Shown here in pieces: positions 27,644-39,541 of a stretch of DNA of 64,000 nucleotides. How positions within the stretch are numbered: the stretch's first letter is position 1; every line of letters begins with the position of its first letter. The notes under the pieces were generated by a model. The model did no database searches and was not told the DNA's origin. It saw only the letters and a list, made by a program, of their open reading frames with translations. Source of the DNA: Legionella steelei (GTDB taxonomy: Bacteria; Pseudomonadota; Gammaproteobacteria; Legionellales; Legionellaceae); NCBI RefSeq assembly GCF_001468005.1, contig NZ_LNYY01000021.1:186637-250636 (forward strand), read 5' to 3'. A program made the translations under genes and the position numbers.

Positions 27644-28498
27644 ATGTGCCGTTTTATAGCGTATACAGGGTGTGAGTTATTATTAGCTAATGTCCTTATA
27701 AAGCCAGAAGACTCTTTGCTAAGACAAAGTAGACTTGCTAAAGAGTCCACTACATTAACCAATGGTGATGGGTTTGGTGTAGGATGGTATGTTCCCAAAA
27801 TTAGTCCAAATCCTGCTGTGTTTTTATCCATTTTCCCAGCATGGAATGATGAAAATTTATTACATTTGACTAACAAAATTGAGTCGCATCTCTTTTTTGC
27901 TCATGTACGAGCGGCAAGCACAGGTGGTGTTAGTCATCTTAATTGTCATCCTTTCATCCATAAAAATTGGATGTTTATGCACAATGGACAAATACATGAT
28001 TTTTCATCCATTAAAAGGCACCTAAGAAATTTATTGGGTGATGAAATTTATAACTGGATTAGAGGTGAAACAGATTCAGAGCATATTTTTGCTTTATTTT
28101 TAGAGTTGTCAAAAGCGAAAGACCTTAATAAATTGTCTGACGTTGCTCAGATATTATTAGATACTTTTAAGACCATTCAGAACTTAATCAATCAATTTGG
28201 CACTCAAGGACCGTCTTATTATAATATTTGCCTTACTGATGGAAAGCGAATCGTGGCAAGTCGTTATTGTACTGAAAAAGTCACAGAGCCAGAATCACTA
28301 CATTATTTGGAAGGAAAGTATTTTTGGTCTGAACAAGAGTATTTGGAGAAGTTTAAATCAAAACAGAGGCCGAGTGTACTTATTGCTTCTGAGCGGTTAA
28401 CTCATTTTTCGCATCAATGGCAAACTGTACCCGCGAATCATATGATTTTAGTAGACTCCGATTATTCAGTTCAAATTCAGCCCATTAAATCAATTTAA
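27644..28498 (+). CDS. Class II glutamine amidotransferase
   Basis: 284-residue Ntn-hydrolase glutaminase related to YafJ/EgtC. After Met removal, Cys2 (MCRF) is the nucleophile. NGDGFGVGWY and HVRAAS, the NCHPF segment and the HNGQI oxyanion motif are all present. It releases ammonia from glutamine for a partner enzyme. The next gene, 17 bases downstream, encodes an FMN glutamate-synthase domain that lacks its own amidotransferase, which makes it the natural partner. A histidine-processing (EgtC-like) role is less likely because no other ergothioneine genes are present. Confidence 0.88.
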   Translation: MCRFIAYTGCELLLANVLIKPEDSLLRQSRLAKESTTLTNGDGFGVGWYVPKISPNPAVFLSIFPAWNDENLLHLTNKIESHLFFAHVRAASTGGVSHLNCHPFIHKNWMFMHNGQIHDFSSIKRHLRNLLGDEIYNWIRGETDSEHIFALFLELSKAKDLNKLSDVAQILLDTFKTIQNLINQFGTQGPSYYNICLTDGKRIVASRYCTEKVTEPESLHYLEGKYFWSEQEYLEKFKSKQRPSVLIASERLTHFSHQWQTVPANHMILVDSDYSVQIQPIKSI

Positions 28499-28515
28499 AT
28501 AAGGAAATTTACCAT

Positions 28516-30120
28516 ATGTGGCAAAAACACTTTTATTTTATTTCAATAGCTCTGCTTCTTATAGTATTTGTTTCCTCTATTTTTTGGGCTTCCAGCCTTT
28601 ATTTTCTTATACTTGTTATTCCCCTCATTATAATAGGAGTTGCAGATTCATTTTCTAAAAATAATGTTCTTTATAATTATCCATTAATTGGCCATATTCG
28701 GTATGTGATGGAATTTATTAGTCCTGAAATCCGCCAATATTTTCTTGAAGATGATAAGAGTGGACGTCCTTATAATCGTCAACAGCGAGAGTTGATAAAA
28801 ATGAGAGCACATGGAATGCCCGGAACTCACCCTTTTGGTACTGAACAAGATATCAAAAAAGAGGGCTTTGATTTCATACTACATTCGATGGCCGAGAAAA
28901 AGGTACCACCCGAGGCCAGTCGAATTATGATTGGTGGGCCTCAGTGCAAACAACCTTATAGCAGTTCTCGCTTAAATATATCGGCGATGAGTTTTGGTGC
29001 ATTAAGCTCTCAGGCTGTCCTTGCCATGAATAAAGGAGCGAAATTAGGCGGGTTTTTACAAGATACTGGAGAGGGAGGACTCACAGACTATCATCTCCGC
29101 TATGAAGCAGACATAGTATGGGAAATTGCCTCAGGCTATTTTGGTTGTCGTACGAAAGAAGGGCGTTTTGATGATGAGGAATTTCGTAAAAAAGCCAATC
29201 AAAAGTCCATTAAAATGATTGCTATAAAGTTATCCCAAGGTGCAAAACCAGGAGATGGAGGTCTTCTCCCTGGAAAAAAGGTAACTAAAGAAATTGCCAA
29301 GTATCGAGATATTCCTGAAGGAAAAGACTGCCAGTCCCCGGCAATTCATCCTGAGTTTAGTACACCTCGTGGGCTGTTGGAATTTATTGTTCGGTTAAGA
29401 ACATTATGCGAAGGCAAGCCGGTAGGTTTTAAATTATGCATAGGTCGACGGAGTGATTTTTTAGGCATCTGTAAAGCCATGCTGGAAACAGGCATTCTTC
29501 CAGATTTTATTACTATTGATGGAGCTGAAGGTGGTACAGGAGCTGCCCCTAGTGAGTTTTCAGACTATGTAGGACTTGCATTAGATGAGGCAATACCATT
29601 TGTTCATTCAAGTTTGGTAGGATGTAATCTCCGTCAACATATTAAAATTCTGGTAAGTGGGAAAATAGTGGATGGATTTGATATGGTAAAAAAAATAGCA
29701 CTGGGTGCTGATTTTTGTAATGTAGCTCGTCCGATGATGTTTGCTGTAGGTTGTATTCAAGCGCTACGTTGTGATACTGGACATTGCCCTACTGGGGTGA
29801 CAACCCAAGATCCAAAACGTGCCAAAGCAATTGATATTGACACTAAAGCCGTTCATGTTAAAAACTATCATCATGAAACCATTAAAAGTTTTCTCCAAAT
29901 AGTTGGAACTTTAGGGGTTGACCACCCTGATAAACTTCATCCCAGCATGATTTGGCATCGATTAGGAAATCAGAGGGCAAAAAACTATACTCAACTCTAT
30001 GATTACTTACAGCCAGGAGCACTATTAAGTGATTCAATCCCAGATGATTTTGCAAGAGATTGGCACCAGGCCAATGCTAATCATTATTTCAATCCTATAC
30101 CCGAAAATTCTAAGGCTTAA
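28516..30120 (+). CDS. FMN-binding glutamate synthase-like protein
   Basis: 534 residues. Two N-terminal membrane helices (about 5-50) precede a GltB-type FMN barrel (about 85-500). The barrel has the SSRLNISAMSFGALS and GAEGGTGAAPSEF segments and three cysteines C413, C419 and C424 spaced C-x5-C-x4-C for the [3Fe-4S] cluster. It lacks the N-terminal glutaminase and C-terminal GXGXG domains of full GltB, like the YerD family. The upstream amidotransferase could supply ammonia, making a split, membrane-tethered enzyme. The electron donor is not visible in this window. Confidence 0.88.
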   Translation: MWQKHFYFISIALLLIVFVSSIFWASSLYFLILVIPLIIIGVADSFSKNNVLYNYPLIGHIRYVMEFISPEIRQYFLEDDKSGRPYNRQQRELIKMRAHGMPGTHPFGTEQDIKKEGFDFILHSMAEKKVPPEASRIMIGGPQCKQPYSSSRLNISAMSFGALSSQAVLAMNKGAKLGGFLQDTGEGGLTDYHLRYEADIVWEIASGYFGCRTKEGRFDDEEFRKKANQKSIKMIAIKLSQGAKPGDGGLLPGKKVTKEIAKYRDIPEGKDCQSPAIHPEFSTPRGLLEFIVRLRTLCEGKPVGFKLCIGRRSDFLGICKAMLETGILPDFITIDGAEGGTGAAPSEFSDYVGLALDEAIPFVHSSLVGCNLRQHIKILVSGKIVDGFDMVKKIALGADFCNVARPMMFAVGCIQALRCDTGHCPTGVTTQDPKRAKAIDIDTKAVHVKNYHHETIKSFLQIVGTLGVDHPDKLHPSMIWHRLGNQRAKNYTQLYDYLQPGALLSDSIPDDFARDWHQANANHYFNPIPENSKA

Positions 30121-34504: not shown

Positions 34505-34525
34505 CAATAGAAATTAAAAAATTTA

Positions 34526-34571
34526 TTAGCAATACGCTTAATGTTCAAAAGAACATTAAGCGTATTGCTAA
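34526..34571. terminator. 21-bp perfect hairpin, bidirectional terminator
   Basis: TTAGCAATACGCTTAATGTTC (34526-34546) is a perfect complement of 34551-34571 with a 4-base AAAA loop. On the minus strand it is followed by TAAATTTTTTAA, a usable U-tract for the gene at 34598. On the plus strand the tail is poor. It separates convergent clcA and the 34598 gene. Confidence 0.8.
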
Positions 34572-34597
34572 CTCATAGATTCTAAGACATCCAGTCC

Positions 34598-35029
34598 TCA
34601 AAATTGTTCTTGATATGTTATATTTGTCTGCTTAAGAGAAACTTTATCGCAACAATTTAGGCTGACAAACTCTTCAGAGCTATTAGTTATTCCTAGGCTA
34701 GATTCAGGCTCTAATTCAAATGAAAAACCATCCTTAAAATTATCGGCGGTAAATAAAACCATTACAGTGCCTTCTGGCATAGTTAAGTTATTAATAATGC
34801 TTTTATTTTTTATTGCAATAAAACTTAATAAATTCTCAGCATTCTGTTCTTTGGATTCCAAATTACATACAAATTTTCTTGTAAATTTAAAATTTCCCTG
34901 CATAAGAAATTGCTCACCAGGAGGGAGATCAAATAAACAATTTGAGGTACCAGATATGCTATTAGAATAGATCGACCATAATAAGAAATTAACTCCCAAA
35001 AATTTGTTACTTATTTCTCTAATTTTCAT
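34598..35029 (-). CDS. Exported hypothetical protein
   Basis: 143 residues. The N-terminus (KFLGVNFLLWSIYSNSISGTS) is a probable but weak signal peptide. The rest is beta-rich, with four cysteines in two separated groups (NCLF/FVCNL and NCC), suggesting disulfides. No family recognised. It lies 44 bases downstream of the amidotransferase gene on the same strand, so it may be the last gene of that transcript. Confidence 0.6.
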   Translation of the reverse strand: MKIREISNKFLGVNFLLWSIYSNSISGTSNCLFDLPPGEQFLMQGNFKFTRKFVCNLESKEQNAENLLSFIAIKNKSIINNLTMPEGTVMVLFTADNFKDGFSFELEPESSLGITNSSEEFVSLNCCDKVSLKQTNITYQEQF

Positions 35030-35073: not shown

Positions 35074-36858
35074 TTATAACTTATGCTGTTGCAACCAATA
35101 CTCAAGCAAACCAACTTGCCACAGCTTAGAAATACCTGAACGCGTAAAATTCTTTTCTGATTTTGTAAATAAGCTTTGAACTGCTTGTAAATTAAAAATA
35201 CCTCTTTGCTTTATGTTTTCAGGAGAAAGTACTTCACGCATTAACTCCAAAGTACTTCCCTCTAAATACTTCAACGCTGGAACAGGAAAATATCCTTTGG
35301 GGCGATCTACAATTTGTTTAGGAAGCATTTTCCTTCCAAGCTGTTTTAAAATATATTTACCTCCTTGGGGCAATTTATATTTAAGGGGCATAGAAGTTGC
35401 AAGTTTGAGCATCTTTTCATCCAAAAAAGGGACTCTTGCTTCTAAACTTGCTGCCATGGTCATATTATCAACTCGGCATAAGGGACCATTTGCTAATGCG
35501 AAGGTGCTTTCATATTTAAGTAGATTATCGACTGGGTTTCTAGAGTTATTTTTTTCACAAAGCTTCATTAAAAAATCCGAAGCATGAAATGGTGTTTGGA
35601 GGTCTGGCATTACAAGTTGCTGGTATTCTTTAAAAGAACGATCAGCTACTTTGTTAAAAATGATTTGTGCTGATTGTGATGGTAAAGCTGGATTTACATG
35701 TATATTTTGAAACCAATGATAACCTGCAAAAATCTCATCTGCGCCTTGACCTGAAAGAACTACTTTAACATGTTTGGATACCTCGTGAGAAAGAAGATAA
35801 AAACCGATATTGTCATGACTCAACATAGGTTCTGACATTGCAGAAATACAATTTCCTAATGAATAGGCTAACTGCTTATTTGAAATAAACATTTGCTGAT
35901 GCTGTGTATTAAATTTTGAAGCAATAAGATTCGAATATAAGAATTCATCACCTTGCTCTCCATGTGTACTATCAAACCCAATAGAGAATGTTTGAATTTC
36001 TTGTTGTCCAAGTTTGGAAGCCATGGCCACAAGTAATGAAGAATCTAATCCTCCAGAAAGTAAGATGCCCACAGGAACGTCTGCAGCTAATTGGCGATGA
36101 GTTGCAGATTTTAATACTTCGTAAGTTTCTTTTATCCAATAATTTTCATCACGATAATGCTCTGCTTTTGTATTCTCGAATTTTAAATCCCAGTAGCTCT
36201 CCTCTTCAATTTTACCATCAGGGTGAACGGTCATTAGGCAACCTGGAGAGAGTTTTTTTACACCAGATAAAATCGTACGCGGTTCAGGAACCGCATGAAA
36301 GGTTAGGTAATAATGAAGTGCGATTCTATCAATTGATGTATCGACATCACCAAATTCAATTAAAGCAGGTAACGTGGATGCAAATTTGAATCCATAATTT
36401 GCATCAGCAGAATAATAAAGTGGTTTAATGCCTAATCGATCGCGGGCAAGTATCAATTTACCTGTATTTTGTTCCCAGATAGCAAAAGCAAACATACCAT
36501 CGATACGATGTACACAATCTTTTCCCCAAGCATGGTATGCCTTAAGAAGTACCTCCGTGTCACTATTGGAATTAAAAGAGTATCCTTTAGATTTTAGGAT
36601 TTCGCGTAACTCAGTAAAATTATAAATTGCTCCATTAAAAACTAATGCCAAACCTAAATCTGAATCAACCATAGGTTGCATCCCCAGATTTGATAAATCA
36701 AAAATTTTCAGTCTTCTGTGTCCAAGCGCCAAACTTTTCGTGAGGTATATATGACCATCATCAGGTCCTCGGTTAAACTGCCTGAGTAAAACCTTTTGTA
36801 GATTAAGAAGAGGAACATTTTTTTTATTGAATTGAAATTCACCGGCGATACCACACAT
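35074..36858 (-). CDS. Asparagine-synthetase-family amidotransferase (NAGGN type)
   Basis: 594 residues. An N-terminal class II glutaminase (Cys2 in MCGIAGE; FNGAIYNF) is joined to an ATP-pyrophosphatase synthetase domain with the PP-loop SGGLDSS at 268-274 and SGQGADEIFAGYHW. The wording of several stretches (NFHAV-like TFHAVPEPRT, MSEPMLSHDNIGFYLLSHEVSKH, GYFPVPALK) is that of the N-acetylglutaminylglutamine amidotransferase (asnO) rather than housekeeping AsnB. It is coupled (14-base gap) to a GNAT gene and a GCS2-type ligase, with a MarR gene divergent. It likely amidates a small peptide osmolyte; plain asparagine synthesis remains possible. Confidence 0.82.
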   Translation of the reverse strand: MCGIAGEFQFNKKNVPLLNLQKVLLRQFNRGPDDGHIYLTKSLALGHRRLKIFDLSNLGMQPMVDSDLGLALVFNGAIYNFTELREILKSKGYSFNSNSDTEVLLKAYHAWGKDCVHRIDGMFAFAIWEQNTGKLILARDRLGIKPLYYSADANYGFKFASTLPALIEFGDVDTSIDRIALHYYLTFHAVPEPRTILSGVKKLSPGCLMTVHPDGKIEEESYWDLKFENTKAEHYRDENYWIKETYEVLKSATHRQLAADVPVGILLSGGLDSSLLVAMASKLGQQEIQTFSIGFDSTHGEQGDEFLYSNLIASKFNTQHQQMFISNKQLAYSLGNCISAMSEPMLSHDNIGFYLLSHEVSKHVKVVLSGQGADEIFAGYHWFQNIHVNPALPSQSAQIIFNKVADRSFKEYQQLVMPDLQTPFHASDFLMKLCEKNNSRNPVDNLLKYESTFALANGPLCRVDNMTMAASLEARVPFLDEKMLKLATSMPLKYKLPQGGKYILKQLGRKMLPKQIVDRPKGYFPVPALKYLEGSTLELMREVLSPENIKQRGIFNLQAVQSLFTKSEKNFTRSGISKLWQVGLLEYWLQQHKL

Positions 36859-36872
36859 AGTCTATCTTCCTT

Positions 36873-37565
36873 TTATAATTTAGAAGTTAAATCCATAGGT
36901 ACATTCACTAATGCATCAGTTGTTTTCAAAGGTTTAAAAAATAATAGGCGTGGTTTGTCGCCGAACTTAGTAAACTCTTCTTGCTCTTGATGTTTCAATG
37001 TTTTCTGTAAGATCCTTTTTGAACCTTCATTTGAGGGGTGAACTGTGGCAACGATTTCTTTAATGTTCTTTTCTAAGGTTCCACTTTCACTTTCAGAAAT
37101 AATGTGCTTTATAAATTTTTTCCCTAAGATTGCAATTTCAGTTCCATAACCTTTTCCCCAAAAAGCTTGATCAATAATATAAGCTATTTCACCGACATTT
37201 TGATGGCCGACTCCCACATGAGAGAAATCATCTAAAGAATGTTTTATGTGGAGATAACCAACAAATTCTTGAGTAGTTGAATGGTAAATTGAAAGCACCG
37301 AGAATTTGTTACCAGAATTCCAACGTTTCGTTTCATCCTGTATGAACTCTTTTACGGCAGAGGGTTCCCAGGTCTTTCCTTCACCAAACATCTTTATATT
37401 TTCAGAGCTCTCTAAAAGAGTAGTATATTTATCAATTAAAAAGCTCTCTTCATCTTGATTGAGAGATCTGGCCACCAACCTATTCGAATAAATTGTGTAA
37501 TGATTTAATTCGCTTTTAATCGTTACATTACCCAATTTTTTTGATGTATAAGTTACTTGTTTCAT
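36873..37565 (-). CDS. GNAT-family N-acetyltransferase
   Basis: 230-residue acetyltransferase of the RimJ/RimL-like GNAT type. The acetyl-CoA pyrophosphate loop is in YIIDQAFWGKGYGTE (about residues 125-140). An N-terminal 40-residue extension and a C-terminal 40-residue tail frame the fold. There is no ATP-grasp domain, unlike the fused NAGGN synthetase of Pseudomonas and Sinorhizobium. It lies between the ligase gene (39-base gap) and the amidotransferase gene (14-base gap), which suggests that it acetylates a dipeptide or amino acid of the same pathway. Confidence 0.8.
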   Translation of the reverse strand: MKQVTYTSKKLGNVTIKSELNHYTIYSNRLVARSLNQDEESFLIDKYTTLLESSENIKMFGEGKTWEPSAVKEFIQDETKRWNSGNKFSVLSIYHSTTQEFVGYLHIKHSLDDFSHVGVGHQNVGEIAYIIDQAFWGKGYGTEIAILGKKFIKHIISESESGTLEKNIKEIVATVHPSNEGSKRILQKTLKHQEQEEFTKFGDKPRLLFFKPLKTTDALVNVPMDLTSKL

Positions 37566-37604
37566 TATTATATTCCTCGATTGCTTTTAAAACAGCAGTT
37601 CCCA

Positions 37605-38825
37605 TCAAGGGGTTGTAATGACAGATTCGCGTCTGTATAGAGGGGTTTGAAGTAAGAACTCACTGACGTTGTGCTTCACAATATCTTTAAGGCAATGATT
37701 GTGAGTAAATACTTTGCGTTGTCGTTCAGAACTTGTCCCTGAATCCATAATCACTTTAAGAGTAGAAAAATAAGTTTGATAGTCCAATTTTTTGATATAG
37801 GGCTTTAATTTTTCAAACCATTCATGGAGGTCTTCGCGCATCAATTTGGTTTTACCTTCAGTATTCATTACTAGCTCAGCATCTAAACCGTAACGAATGG
37901 CTCTCCATTTGTTTTCTCGAGAAAGCCAATAAGGGGGATAGGCGACTGATTCAAGCCAACTTCCATTATCAGCAAACCAATGGGCAAGTGTATGAATCAA
38001 GGCAACTAAAGCAAGCGTCTCTGATAAAGTGGCAGCACCATCACAAACACGAATTTCTAATGTTCCAAATCCAGGACTTGGTCTTAAATCCCACCATAAA
38101 TCTTTAAGAGATTTAATCGAACCGCATAATTTTAATGACTTATATAAATGCTCAAAATCTTGCCATGTTCGGACATGATAGGGTTGTCCTGCAGTTGGTA
38201 ACGCTTCATAAGTAGTTGGTCTACAAGAGGCAAGCCCTGTATCTATTCCTTGCCAGAACGGAGAGCTTGAAGAAAGCGCTAATAAATGAGGTAAAAAATA
38301 CATGAAAAAGTTGTTAAATCGAATACAATCTTCACCACTGGACATGCCAATGTGAACATGTAAGCCATAGACACTCATACGTCGGGTAAGCCATTGATTA
38401 CGATCAATTAGCTCTTGATAACGAGTCGTAGGAGAGACTACCCAATCGGAGTATTTAGAGAAAGGGTGAGATCCGGTTGTGGAAAATAAAATCCCTAAAT
38501 CCTTTGTTGCTAGTTGTAAAGAAGCGAGTGTTTTATAAAGATCATCTTCAACTTCCTGAGCAGTGATGCATTTATCTGTATTCACTTCTATAGTACTTAA
38601 ATAAAACTCTTGTTTAATTTTTTCGAGATGGGCTGTAGCATTAAGTACATCAGTTGCTCTTGAGCATAAATTAAAGTTTTTAGAGTCAATGAGCTGGAGC
38701 TCAATTTCTACTCCTAACGTTAATACTCCATTACTATTAAAATAAATTTCTTCCTCTGTAGGAGTGCAGGTCAATTGCGATGCATCCCTGGTTGATCTTA
38801 AGAGTTGGTTAATTTGATTATCCAT
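37605..38825 (-). CDS. Carboxylate-amine ligase (GCS2/YbdK family)
   Basis: 406-residue ATP-dependent glutamate-cysteine-ligase-2 type enzyme. It has GVEIELQLID (metal/ATP acidic residues), the GLHVHIGM motif and the FGTLEIRVCDGA segment. I chose ATG 38825 because GGGAGGA lies 7 bases before it; a longer reading from 38897 has no site. YbdK members have weak glutamate-cysteine ligase activity, and their natural substrates are mostly unknown. Here the context (GNAT plus NAGGN-type amidotransferase) suggests formation of a glutamate or glutamine dipeptide. Confidence 0.86.
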   Translation of the reverse strand: MDNQINQLLRSTRDASQLTCTPTEEEIYFNSNGVLTLGVEIELQLIDSKNFNLCSRATDVLNATAHLEKIKQEFYLSTIEVNTDKCITAQEVEDDLYKTLASLQLATKDLGILFSTTGSHPFSKYSDWVVSPTTRYQELIDRNQWLTRRMSVYGLHVHIGMSSGEDCIRFNNFFMYFLPHLLALSSSSPFWQGIDTGLASCRPTTYEALPTAGQPYHVRTWQDFEHLYKSLKLCGSIKSLKDLWWDLRPSPGFGTLEIRVCDGAATLSETLALVALIHTLAHWFADNGSWLESVAYPPYWLSRENKWRAIRYGLDAELVMNTEGKTKLMREDLHEWFEKLKPYIKKLDYQTYFSTLKVIMDSGTSSERQRKVFTHNHCLKDIVKHNVSEFLLQTPLYRRESVITTP

Positions 38826-38968
38826 TCGATAATCCTCCCTTTGTTGATGATACTTGAGAATTACTAAAGTGACTGGTGTATTGAAAATTAATTTCAATAT
38901 TATTTTTGAGGATACTTCTATAGTTATATTGAATACTTGGATACAATAGCTAATGCCCTTAAAAATCT

Positions 38969-38996
38969 ATATCTGTTGATATTATTTGTACACAAA
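38969..38996. promoter_or_regulatory. Paired small inverted repeats, possible MarR operator
   Basis: ATATC-TGTT-GATAT (38969-38982) is followed closely by TTTGT-AC-ACAAA (38985-38996), in the gap between the divergent ligase and MarR genes. That is where an autoregulated MarR operator is expected. Visual evidence only. Confidence 0.3.
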
Positions 38997-39058
38997 GTAT
39001 TTATCATGGTACTGGGTAAATTAGTTCATTGCAACCGTTAATAGGTAAAGAATCATCC

Positions 39059-39541
39059 ATGAGTGATATCGAGAAAAAATCGCTAGACGACAAAATAACC
39101 GCTGCTCAACAGTCAGAACAGCGTTCCAAAAGCATCATTCTTGCCTTACGAAAAATTATGCAGCAGATGGATTATCATTCCAGAAGATTAAACAAATGCT
39201 ATGGCTTAACTGTCCCTCAAATAGTCTGTTTGTATGAAATTTATGAAAATGGAAGAATGACCATATCTGCTCTTTCAAAAAAAATATATTTATCAATGAG
39301 CACTATTGTAGGGGTAATTGACCGACTAGAAGAAAAACAATTTGTTAATCGAACACGTGATATTCAGGACCGCCGTATTATTTATATTGATATTACAGAA
39401 AAAGGAAAAGAGTTTGTTTCTGCTGCCCCTTATCTTCTACATAATAGATTGAACGATAACCTTCAGGTTTTAACTGTAGAGGAGCAAATAGCGCTTGCTA
39501 ATTCAATCAATTTATTAGTTGATCTTTTAAGAGATATATAA
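39059..39541 (+). CDS. MarR-family transcriptional regulator
   Basis: 160-residue winged-helix dimer protein. The HTH is at about 55-100 (TISALSKKIYLSMSTIVGVIDRLEEKQFV) and the wing contains the family DRR motif (RDIQDRRIIYIDITEKG). I chose ATG 39059 rather than TTG 39029. It is divergent from the ligase-GNAT-amidotransferase genes. A MarR gene also flanks NAGGN genes in Pseudomonas, so it probably controls the cassette in response to osmotic or related stress. Confidence 0.88.
   Translation: MSDIEKKSLDDKITAAQQSEQRSKSIILALRKIMQQMDYHSRRLNKCYGLTVPQIVCLYEIYENGRMTISALSKKIYLSMSTIVGVIDRLEEKQFVNRTRDIQDRRIIYIDITEKGKEFVSAAPYLLHNRLNDNLQVLTVEEQIALANSINLLVDLLRDI

What the first reader, a model, noticed from the sequence alone, without database searches (positions are those of the whole stretch)
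35074..39541. NAGGN-like osmolyte cassette with a GCS2 ligase in place of the ATP-grasp synthetase
Seen: a NAGGN-type amidotransferase, a stand-alone 230-aa GNAT and a YbdK/GCS2 carboxylate-amine ligase lie in one tight minus-strand run, with a divergent MarR gene. Known: in Pseudomonas and Sinorhizobium NAGGN is made by AsnO plus Ngg (GNAT fused to ATP-grasp), and a MarR gene and a peptidase flank them in Pseudomonas. Inference: here the ligase step is done by a different fold and the acetyltransferase is separate, so this could be an unrecognised variant making an acetylated, amidated glutamine/glutamate dipeptide. Next to trehalase, CLC and antiporters, an osmolyte role is sensible.
Basis: partly seen in the sequence, partly recalled or inferred. 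Interest (0 to 1): 0.75.

Follow-up and report, generated by a model that had tools for sequence, protein, structure and literature searches.

The report
NAGGN-like cassette with swapped ligase
A Legionella gene set looks like the known bacterial salt-protection pathway for a small capped dipeptide, except that the enzyme joining the two amino acids has been replaced by an unrelated one, and similar pairings occur in some other bacteria.

Summary
Window 35074-38825 (-) encodes a GCS2/YbdK ligase, a stand-alone GNAT and a TIGR03104 amidotransferase (786.9 bits, cut-off 570.1) in one tight run, with a divergent MarR gene. The host is a Legionella; none of 45 genus genomes has Ngg over its cut-off.

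New here: (1) in 6 of 6 genomes with a MarR gene beside AsnO, that gene is the window MarR's best genome-wide match, and the window's only exact match to the published PA3458 motif lies in the MarR-GCS2 gap. (2) The same operator precedes GCS2 or GNAT in 12 of 12 further Legionellaceae cassette loci. (3) AsnO-GCS2 pairs without adjacent Ngg occur in G747 and in five genomes of another family, whose GCS2 is a different clade.

Best reading: a NAGGN-type, MarR-controlled osmoadaptation cassette whose Ngg was displaced by GCS2 plus GNAT, probably making an N-acetylated gamma-glutamyl dipeptide amide. Product and salt induction are inferred; AU tests do not settle AsnO's descent.

The parts
35074..36858 (-). 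AsnO-like class II glutamine amidotransferase of the asparagine-synthase fold, 594 aa; inferred to amidate the C-terminal carboxylate of the dipeptide
   Evidence: TIGR03104 786.9 bits (cut-off 570.1), Asn_synthase and GATase Pfam domains; Cys2 and SGGLDSS present
36873..37565 (-). stand-alone GNAT, 230 aa; inferred N-acetylation step
   Evidence: Acetyltransf_3 50.8 bits; GKGYGTE invariant in 11 Legionella rows; no NCBIfam family at 0.01, no PDB match at 0.001, no detectable relation to the Ngg profile
37605..38825 (-). GCS2/YbdK-family carboxylate-amine ligase, 406 aa from ATG 38825 (ORF open to TTG 38897); inferred dipeptide-forming step
   Evidence: TIGR02050 281.5 bits (cut-off 176.4), GCS2 Pfam 162 bits; GVEIE = GhExE signature; best PDB match YbdK 1r8g; start
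38981..39001 (.). operator-like palindrome in the MarR-GCS2 gap; exact PA3458 motif A match at 38985-38999
   Evidence: same kind of site elsewhere
39029..39541 (+). divergent MarR-family regulator, 170 aa (an in-frame ATG lies at 39059)
   Evidence: PF01047 65.1 bits; in 6 of 6 genomes with a MarR gene beside AsnO that gene is its best genome-wide match
34525..34572 (-). terminator-like hairpin (20-pair stem) downstream of the run, beyond the 143-aa ORF
   Evidence: consensus scan only
34598..35029 (-). 143-aa ORF of unknown function directly downstream of AsnO; membership uncertain, kept beside AsnO in 2 other genomes
   Evidence: no family; 84-85% in G034, G411
27644..28498 (+). EgtC-like class II amidotransferase; possible partner only (about 6.6 kb from AsnO)
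   Evidence: TIGR03442 184.6 bits, below the cut-off 218.65; its family lies beside AsnO and/or GCS2 in G747 and family f216, but in none of 27 other Legionella loci

Best explanation
This is a NAGGN-type osmoadaptation cassette in which the fused GNAT/ATP-grasp synthetase Ngg has been displaced by two unrelated proteins: a GCS2/YbdK carboxylate-amine ligase and a stand-alone GNAT. Proposed mechanism: GCS2 activates a glutamate carboxylate (by family rule usually the gamma one) with ATP and joins it to the amine of a second amino acid, probably Glu or Gln; the GNAT acetylates the free alpha-amine; the AsnO-like enzyme moves the amide nitrogen of glutamine onto the remaining C-terminal carboxylate. 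The result would be an N-acetyl dipeptide amide, an isomer or analogue of NAGGN. A MarR repressor holds the run off through the palindrome at 38981-39001 and releases it under osmotic stress. Shown by comparison: gene identities, co-occurrence, the shared operator-like site and the MarR relationship. Inferred: every reaction, their order, the linkage, the product, repression, and induction by salt.
For: Amidotransferase 786.9 bits on TIGR03104. Ngg over cut-off in 0 of 45 genus genomes (36, 9). Trio intact in 10 of 45 genomes, partial sets in 13 more. MarR: in 6 of 6 genomes with a MarR gene beside AsnO (Ngg seen beside it in 5; the contig of G536 ends first), that gene is the window MarR's best genome-wide match (with 41, 42). 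Operator: one exact match in the window to the PA3458 ChIP motif A of P. aeruginosa (passages of PMC8070244), and it lies in the MarR-GCS2 gap. A matrix from 8 Legionella sites puts its best site of the whole locus upstream of GCS2 or GNAT in 12 of 12 further Legionellaceae cassette loci (at most 2 of 300 shuffles each), including the unlinked GNAT of G403; it ranks first in the locus inside the MarR-AsnO gap in 8 of 12 MarR-AsnO loci of other families (6 of 12 under p 0.05 alone, Fisher 1.3e-8 over partly related loci). Outside the genus: G747 has AsnO 64% and GCS2 61% side by side and no Ngg over cut-off; five genomes of family f216 have AsnO-GCS2, and four of those GCS2s tested belong to another clade (one clade rejected, AU 7.6e-6). 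Published: P. aeruginosa deletion mutants of PA3459 and of PA3459-PA3461 grow much slower in 0.5 M NaCl or 0.7 M sucrose (passages).
Against: No metabolite, enzyme or expression data. TIGR03104 also takes AsnO genes without Ngg, so the model does not prove NAGGN. AsnO is missing from genomes that keep GCS2-GNAT with the site and a MarR gene (G008, G010, G013, G023, G407) or with the site only (G033), so the regulated core looks like GCS2, not AsnO. None of the 12 further loci has a MarR match in the fetched stretch, six of them full or broken trios; whether those genomes hold the MarR elsewhere was not searched. No site was found at two GNAT-paralogue loci (L120, L121), at a broken second GCS2 of G403 (L115), or at distant GCS2 genes (L292, L293). 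The PA3458 motif match is not rare by itself (30 of 100 shuffles of the window had one); the narrower motif A' of the paper fits at 7 of 15 positions; and that paper reports that binding could not be shown by EMSA. In G054, which has no MarR beside AsnO, another MarR matched the window's at 3.5e-12, as well as the NAGGN one of G458 (4.4e-12). AU tests do not reject Ngg-linked AsnOs as one clade (p 0.40) or GCS2-linked AsnOs as one clade (p 0.18). Sixteen of 133 synthetase-domain columns conserved in 22 Ngg-type AsnOs are changed in Legionella and G747, so the acceptor may differ. In G011 and G031 the GCS2 frame is broken.
Confidence: 0.58

Rival explanations
1. A gamma-glutamyl pathway that is not an osmolyte pathway: GCS2 attaches glutamate as a protecting or activating group, AsnO amidates the protected acceptor, and an EgtC-like Ntn hydrolase removes the glutamate again; the Legionella version adds an acetyl cap. 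The end product would be a free amide or a specialised metabolite.
For: An EgtC-like class II amidotransferase lies next to AsnO in 9 of 24 f216 genomes (3 of them also with GCS2) and in G747 in the order GATase-AsnO-GCS2; the window has one 6.6 kb away. Ergothioneine synthesis (EgtA, a GCS2 enzyme, and EgtC) is a precedent (recalled). A related ligase family is reported to neighbour a glutamine amidotransferase-like peptidase in proteobacteria (passage of PMC2588565).
Against: No such gene lies in any of the 27 other Legionella loci compared. The MarR and the operator-like site tie the Legionella set to NAGGN operons.
Confidence: 0.2
2. Separate enzymes under one stress regulator: GCS2 makes gamma-glutamylcysteine or another gamma-glutamyl compound for redox use, the GNAT modifies something else, and AsnO joined by chance.
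For: GCS2 occurs alone with MarR and site (G016, G024 C8) and GNAT homologues occur alone (G409, G005); the nearest equivalog models are named glutamate--cysteine ligase, below cut-off.
Against: The unlinked GNAT of G403 has the same kind of site as its GCS2-AsnO. AsnO-GCS2 recurs in G747 and f216. GCS2 and GNAT track AsnO across 36 genomes.
Confidence: 0.12
3. The amidotransferase is an ordinary asparagine synthase and its neighbours are incidental.
For: TIGR01536 (general asparagine synthase) also passes, 436.7 against 267.1; solitary and glutaredoxin-linked TIGR03104 proteins exist.
Against: TIGR03104 scores 350 bits higher and NF006949 fails (302 against 499). The gene is over cut-off in only 13 of 36 genus genomes, and in all 16 genus genomes where a locus with it was fetched it lies beside GCS2 and/or GNAT.
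Confidence: 0.07

Closest known systems
NAGGN pathway (AsnO-Ngg; S. meliloti asnO-ngg, P. aeruginosa PA3459-PA3461 with MarR PA3458)
   Same: AsnO of the TIGR03104 type, divergent MarR of the same kind, matching operator motif, an acetyltransferase encoded in the run
   Different: No Ngg over cut-off in the genus; the ligase is GCS2; the GNAT is separate and not detectably related to Ngg; no M42 peptidase among the neighbours scanned; order GCS2-GNAT-AsnO
YbdK/GCS2 carboxylate-amine ligases (solved: 1r8g, 1tt4)
   Same: Family, GhExE signature, RPSP-GT-E-R block
   Different: Own clade, about 28-36% identical to the other GCS2 compared; below every equivalog cut-off listed; partnered with AsnO and GNAT
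Ergothioneine genes EgtA/EgtC
   Same: GCS2-type ligase and, outside Legionella, an adjacent EgtC-like amidotransferase
   Different: EgtC model not passed (156-202 against 218.65); no EgtA model among the hits listed; AsnO has no counterpart there (recalled)
AsnO-GCS2 runs of G747 and family f216 (found here)
   Same: AsnO directly beside GCS2, without adjacent Ngg
   Different: No GNAT seen; EgtC-like gene in 3 of 5 f216 runs and in G747; f216 GCS2 from another clade; no convincing operator in f216

Membership tests
NAGGN biosynthesis cassette | AsnO amidotransferase (TIGR03104 over cut-off) | tested here: met
   786.9 bits against 570.1; but the model also takes AsnO without Ngg
NAGGN biosynthesis cassette | Ngg: fused GNAT and ATP-grasp synthetase (TIGR03103 over cut-off) | tested here: not met
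   0 of 45 genus genomes over cut-off; own genome best 178 bits, model positions 237-544 only
NAGGN biosynthesis cassette | M42 peptidase with the genes | not tested
   None among the ten window proteins scanned; the genome was not searched for it
NAGGN biosynthesis cassette | divergent MarR of the PA3458 kind and its binding motif | tested here: met
   by sequence only, one direction of the match
NAGGN biosynthesis cassette | product NAGGN in salt-stressed cells | not testable with these tools
   needs metabolite data
YbdK/GCS2 ligase family | TIGR02050 / PF04107 over cut-off and GhExE signature | tested here: met
   281.5 against 176.4; 162 against 21; GVEIE
YbdK/GCS2 ligase family | a named equivalog within it | tested here: not met
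   best 363.3 against 409
Housekeeping AsnB | NF006949 over cut-off | tested here: not met
   302.1 against 499
Ergothioneine pathway | EgtC (TIGR03442) over cut-off | tested here: not met
   window protein 184.6 against 218.65

The most novel reading that the evidence does not exclude
There is a second, unrecognised route to capped dipeptide-amide osmolytes in Pseudomonadota: a TIGR03104 amidotransferase works with a GCS2 ligase instead of Ngg and gives a gamma-glutamyl isomer or analogue of NAGGN. It arose at least twice from two different GCS2 clades, in Legionella kept the old MarR switch and gained its own acetyltransferase, and in other lineages uses an EgtC-like hydrolase to take the compound apart.
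Probability: 0.4. Interest if true: 0.75.

Novelty: new variant of a known kind. Interest (0 to 1): 0.6.

Why it matters
If true, it gives a testable role to two GCS2 clades without an assigned substrate, predicts a new small molecule in Legionella and in another family of bacteria, shows that the TIGR03104 label 'N-acetylglutaminylglutamine amidotransferase' overcalls NAGGN, and gives a case of non-homologous replacement of a ligase inside a regulon that kept its operator.

Tried and rejected
Trio outside Legionella by GNAT: 1 of 369 genomes of the class matches at 1e-20, the window's own; no plasmid match at 1e-6.

GNAT or GCS2 as fission products of Ngg: profile comparison gives 0.1% and 0.09%; the alignments are thin, so this is weak evidence.

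TIGR03104 as sufficient evidence for NAGGN: rejected. In the phylum sample, of 42 AsnO genomes other than the window's, 36 have Ngg adjacent, 2 GCS2, 3 neither, 1 is cut by a contig end. In family f216, of 24, 4 have Ngg, 5 GCS2, 6 the EgtC-like gene only, 9 none of these within 1.5 kb, some cut by contig ends.

Legionella AsnO as a proven descendant of Ngg-linked AsnO: the best tree says so, the AU test does not.

First GCS2 tree: 10 of 64 rows dropped because the matched stretch held a stop; redone on a chosen set of 47 of 47 rows, longest open stretch only.

Operator: none convincing in nine f216 loci scanned (L241, L321-L328). Weaker in L112 and L057 (1 and 2 of 300 shuffles). In G747 the best site of the locus lies just upstream of its EgtC-like gene (4 of 1000 shuffles): suggestive only. 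L050 has no promoter region of GCS2 on its contig; the promoter of the other G024 piece (L113) was not scanned.

Literature, full-text searches of the held open-access library: 'NAGGN' with 'carboxylate-amine ligase' 0 papers; 'N-acetylglutaminylglutamine' with 'glutamate-cysteine ligase' 1, unrelated on its passages; Legionella with 'osmoprotectant' and 'asparagine synthase' 0; Legionella with 'N-acetylglutaminylglutamine' 6, seen as a listing only; 'asparagine synth' with 'glutamine amidotransferase', 'carboxylate-amine ligase' and 'operon' 0. Searches were seen as listings. Subscription papers are not covered.
Full report
WHAT IS THERE. The minus strand of 35074-38825 holds three genes in one direction with gaps of 14 and 39 nt: GCS2/YbdK ligase, GNAT, AsnO-like amidotransferase; a MarR gene runs the other way from 39029. 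The GCS2 start is best placed at ATG 38825. The AsnO-like protein scores 786.9 bits on TIGR03104 (cut-off 570.1) and fails the AsnB model. The ligase passes TIGR02050 and the GCS2 Pfam model but no equivalog; its solved relatives are YbdK 1r8g and 1tt4. The GNAT passes two general Pfam acetyltransferase models and nothing narrower.

DISTRIBUTION IN THE GENUS. 45 genomes are held. GCS2 of this clade is in 25 of 45 (E up to 1e-100) and the GNAT family in 25 of 45 (E up to 1e-15). TIGR03104 was searched in 36 of them: 13 over cut-off; three of the other nine (G403, G408, G411) have AsnO in fetched loci. From the loci: intact trio in 10; trio with a broken GCS2 frame in 2 (G011, G031) and with a shortened GNAT in 1 (G034); GCS2-AsnO without adjacent GNAT in 2 (G403; G024, cut by contig ends); GNAT-AsnO without adjacent GCS2 in 1 (G026, with GCS2 elsewhere); GCS2-GNAT without AsnO in 6 (for G407 judged from the locus only), plus G029 with a 91-aa AsnO remnant; GCS2 alone in 2 (G014, G016); GNAT family without this GCS2 in 3; neither GCS2 nor GNAT in the remaining 17. 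Ngg over cut-off: 0 of 45 (36, 9). Trehalase, CLC and antiporter neighbours are mostly not shared.

THE SWITCH. In Pseudomonas the NAGGN operon is repressed by the divergent MarR protein PA3458, whose ChIP-derived motif A is TTHGNASDSRAARDA (passages of PMC8070244). The window has exactly one match, at 38985-38999 in the MarR-GCS2 gap; 0.37 are expected in the window and 30 of 100 shuffles have at least one, so its place is what counts. The narrower motif A' fits at 7 of 15 positions, and the paper's authors could not show binding by EMSA. The palindrome was found by aligning Legionella gaps before the paper's motif was looked up. A matrix from eight Legionella sites gave the best site of the whole locus 60-324 bp upstream of GCS2 or GNAT in 12 of 12 further Legionellaceae cassette loci (L049, L051, L052, L054-L057, L106, L112, L114, L116, L117). 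At most 2 of 300 shuffles reached these scores. One is the unlinked GNAT of G403. None of the 12 has a MarR match in the stretch held (L117 is cut by a contig end); the rest of those genomes was not searched for it. No site was found at the paralogue loci L120 and L121, the MAG locus L137, the G854 locus L288, the broken second GCS2 of G403 (L115), or the distant GCS2 of L292 and L293. On all 12 distinct loci of other families in which a MarR match had been seen beside AsnO, the matrix ranked first in the locus inside the gap in 8; 6 of 12 have shuffle p under 0.05, combined 1.3e-8; several loci are close kin, and L231 is cut before Ngg. The window MarR's best genome-wide match was the MarR beside AsnO in 6 of 6 genomes that have one. 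Of four genomes without one, G044 and G056 gave no match, G049 2.7e-7 and G054 3.5e-12, the last as good as the NAGGN MarR of G458 (4.4e-12). The reverse search was not done.

OUTSIDE LEGIONELLA. In a sample of 398 Pseudomonadota genomes, 43 have TIGR03104 at E up to 1e-165. Of the 42 other than the window's, 36 have Ngg beside AsnO, G747 and G757 have GCS2, three have neither, one is cut. G747 belongs to another class; it has an EgtC-like gene, AsnO (64%) and GCS2 (61%) in a row, no GNAT, no Ngg over cut-off. Its GCS2 has a close relative without AsnO in G854. In 24 AsnO genomes of family f216 (unnamed), 4 have Ngg adjacent, 5 GCS2 (G757, G1050, G1071, G1109, G1164), 6 the EgtC-like gene only, 9 none of these within 1.5 kb. 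Genome-wide absence of Ngg was checked for G757 and G747, not for the other four f216 genomes. The f216 GCS2 (four of five in the tree) and the Legionella/G747 GCS2 are different clades: one clade is rejected, AU 7.6e-6.

DESCENT. In a tree of 58 chosen AsnOs, midpoint-rooted, the Legionella-G747 group (100/100) lies inside the set of Ngg-linked AsnOs, and the four glutaredoxin-linked ones lie outside (the glutaredoxin genes were recognised by eye; three of those genomes, G044, G054 and G056, have no Ngg over cut-off, while G049 has one beside its other AsnO). AU tests do not exclude one Ngg clade (p 0.40) or one GCS2-linked AsnO clade (p 0.18). So replacement of Ngg is the best reading, and two ligase recruitments follow from the GCS2 tree, but AsnO descent is not settled. 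Of 205 columns conserved in 22 Ngg-type AsnOs, 18 are changed in ten Legionella rows and G747: 16 of 133 in the synthetase domain, 2 of 72 in the glutaminase domain (p 0.036), which fits a changed acceptor.

MECHANISM. GCS-type enzymes phosphorylate a carboxylate, usually the glutamate gamma-carboxylate, and join it to an amino acid amine (passages of PMC2588565). The most economical chain is ligation, acetylation, amidation. It parallels NAGGN, where Ngg acetylates and ligates and AsnO amidates (passages). The separate survival of GCS2 alone and of GCS2-GNAT fits a stepwise chain whose later caps can be lost. None of this is shown biochemically.

VERDICT. A new variant of a known kind. It works like a NAGGN cassette but is not a member in the strict sense, since Ngg was tested for and not found.

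Noticed in passing
L040, L042, L043, L044 (G056, G049 C18, G054, G044): AsnO genes scoring about 960-990 bits on TIGR03104 lie beside a monothiol-glutaredoxin-like gene (recognised by eye), not beside Ngg; the label 'N-acetylglutaminylglutamine amidotransferase' is not specific.
   Followed up: partly
27644-30120: EgtC-like class II amidotransferase followed by a glutamate-synthase-like protein (the latter by eye); the same amidotransferase family lies near other GCS2 genes on L. lytica and L. adelaidensis plasmids (L292, L293).
   Followed up: partly
L241 8568-9458; L305 3212-3697: A phosphatidylserine-decarboxylase-like gene (below the model cut-offs) stands near AsnO-GCS2 in G757 and G1050.
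   Followed up: no
L119 3249-6857 (G015): GNAT divergent from a MarR gene with the same operator-like site; beyond MarR an antiporter-like gene (by eye) and a distant GCS2 (29%): a possible older arrangement of the regulon.
   Followed up: partly
L114 5573-6692 (G403): Transposase-like genes (by eye) close to the GCS2-AsnO pair; the same kind of ORF lies near a broken GCS2 and the unlinked GNAT of this genome (L115, L116).
   Followed up: no
34598-35029: 143-aa ORF behind AsnO, kept in two other genomes, no family match.
   Followed up: no
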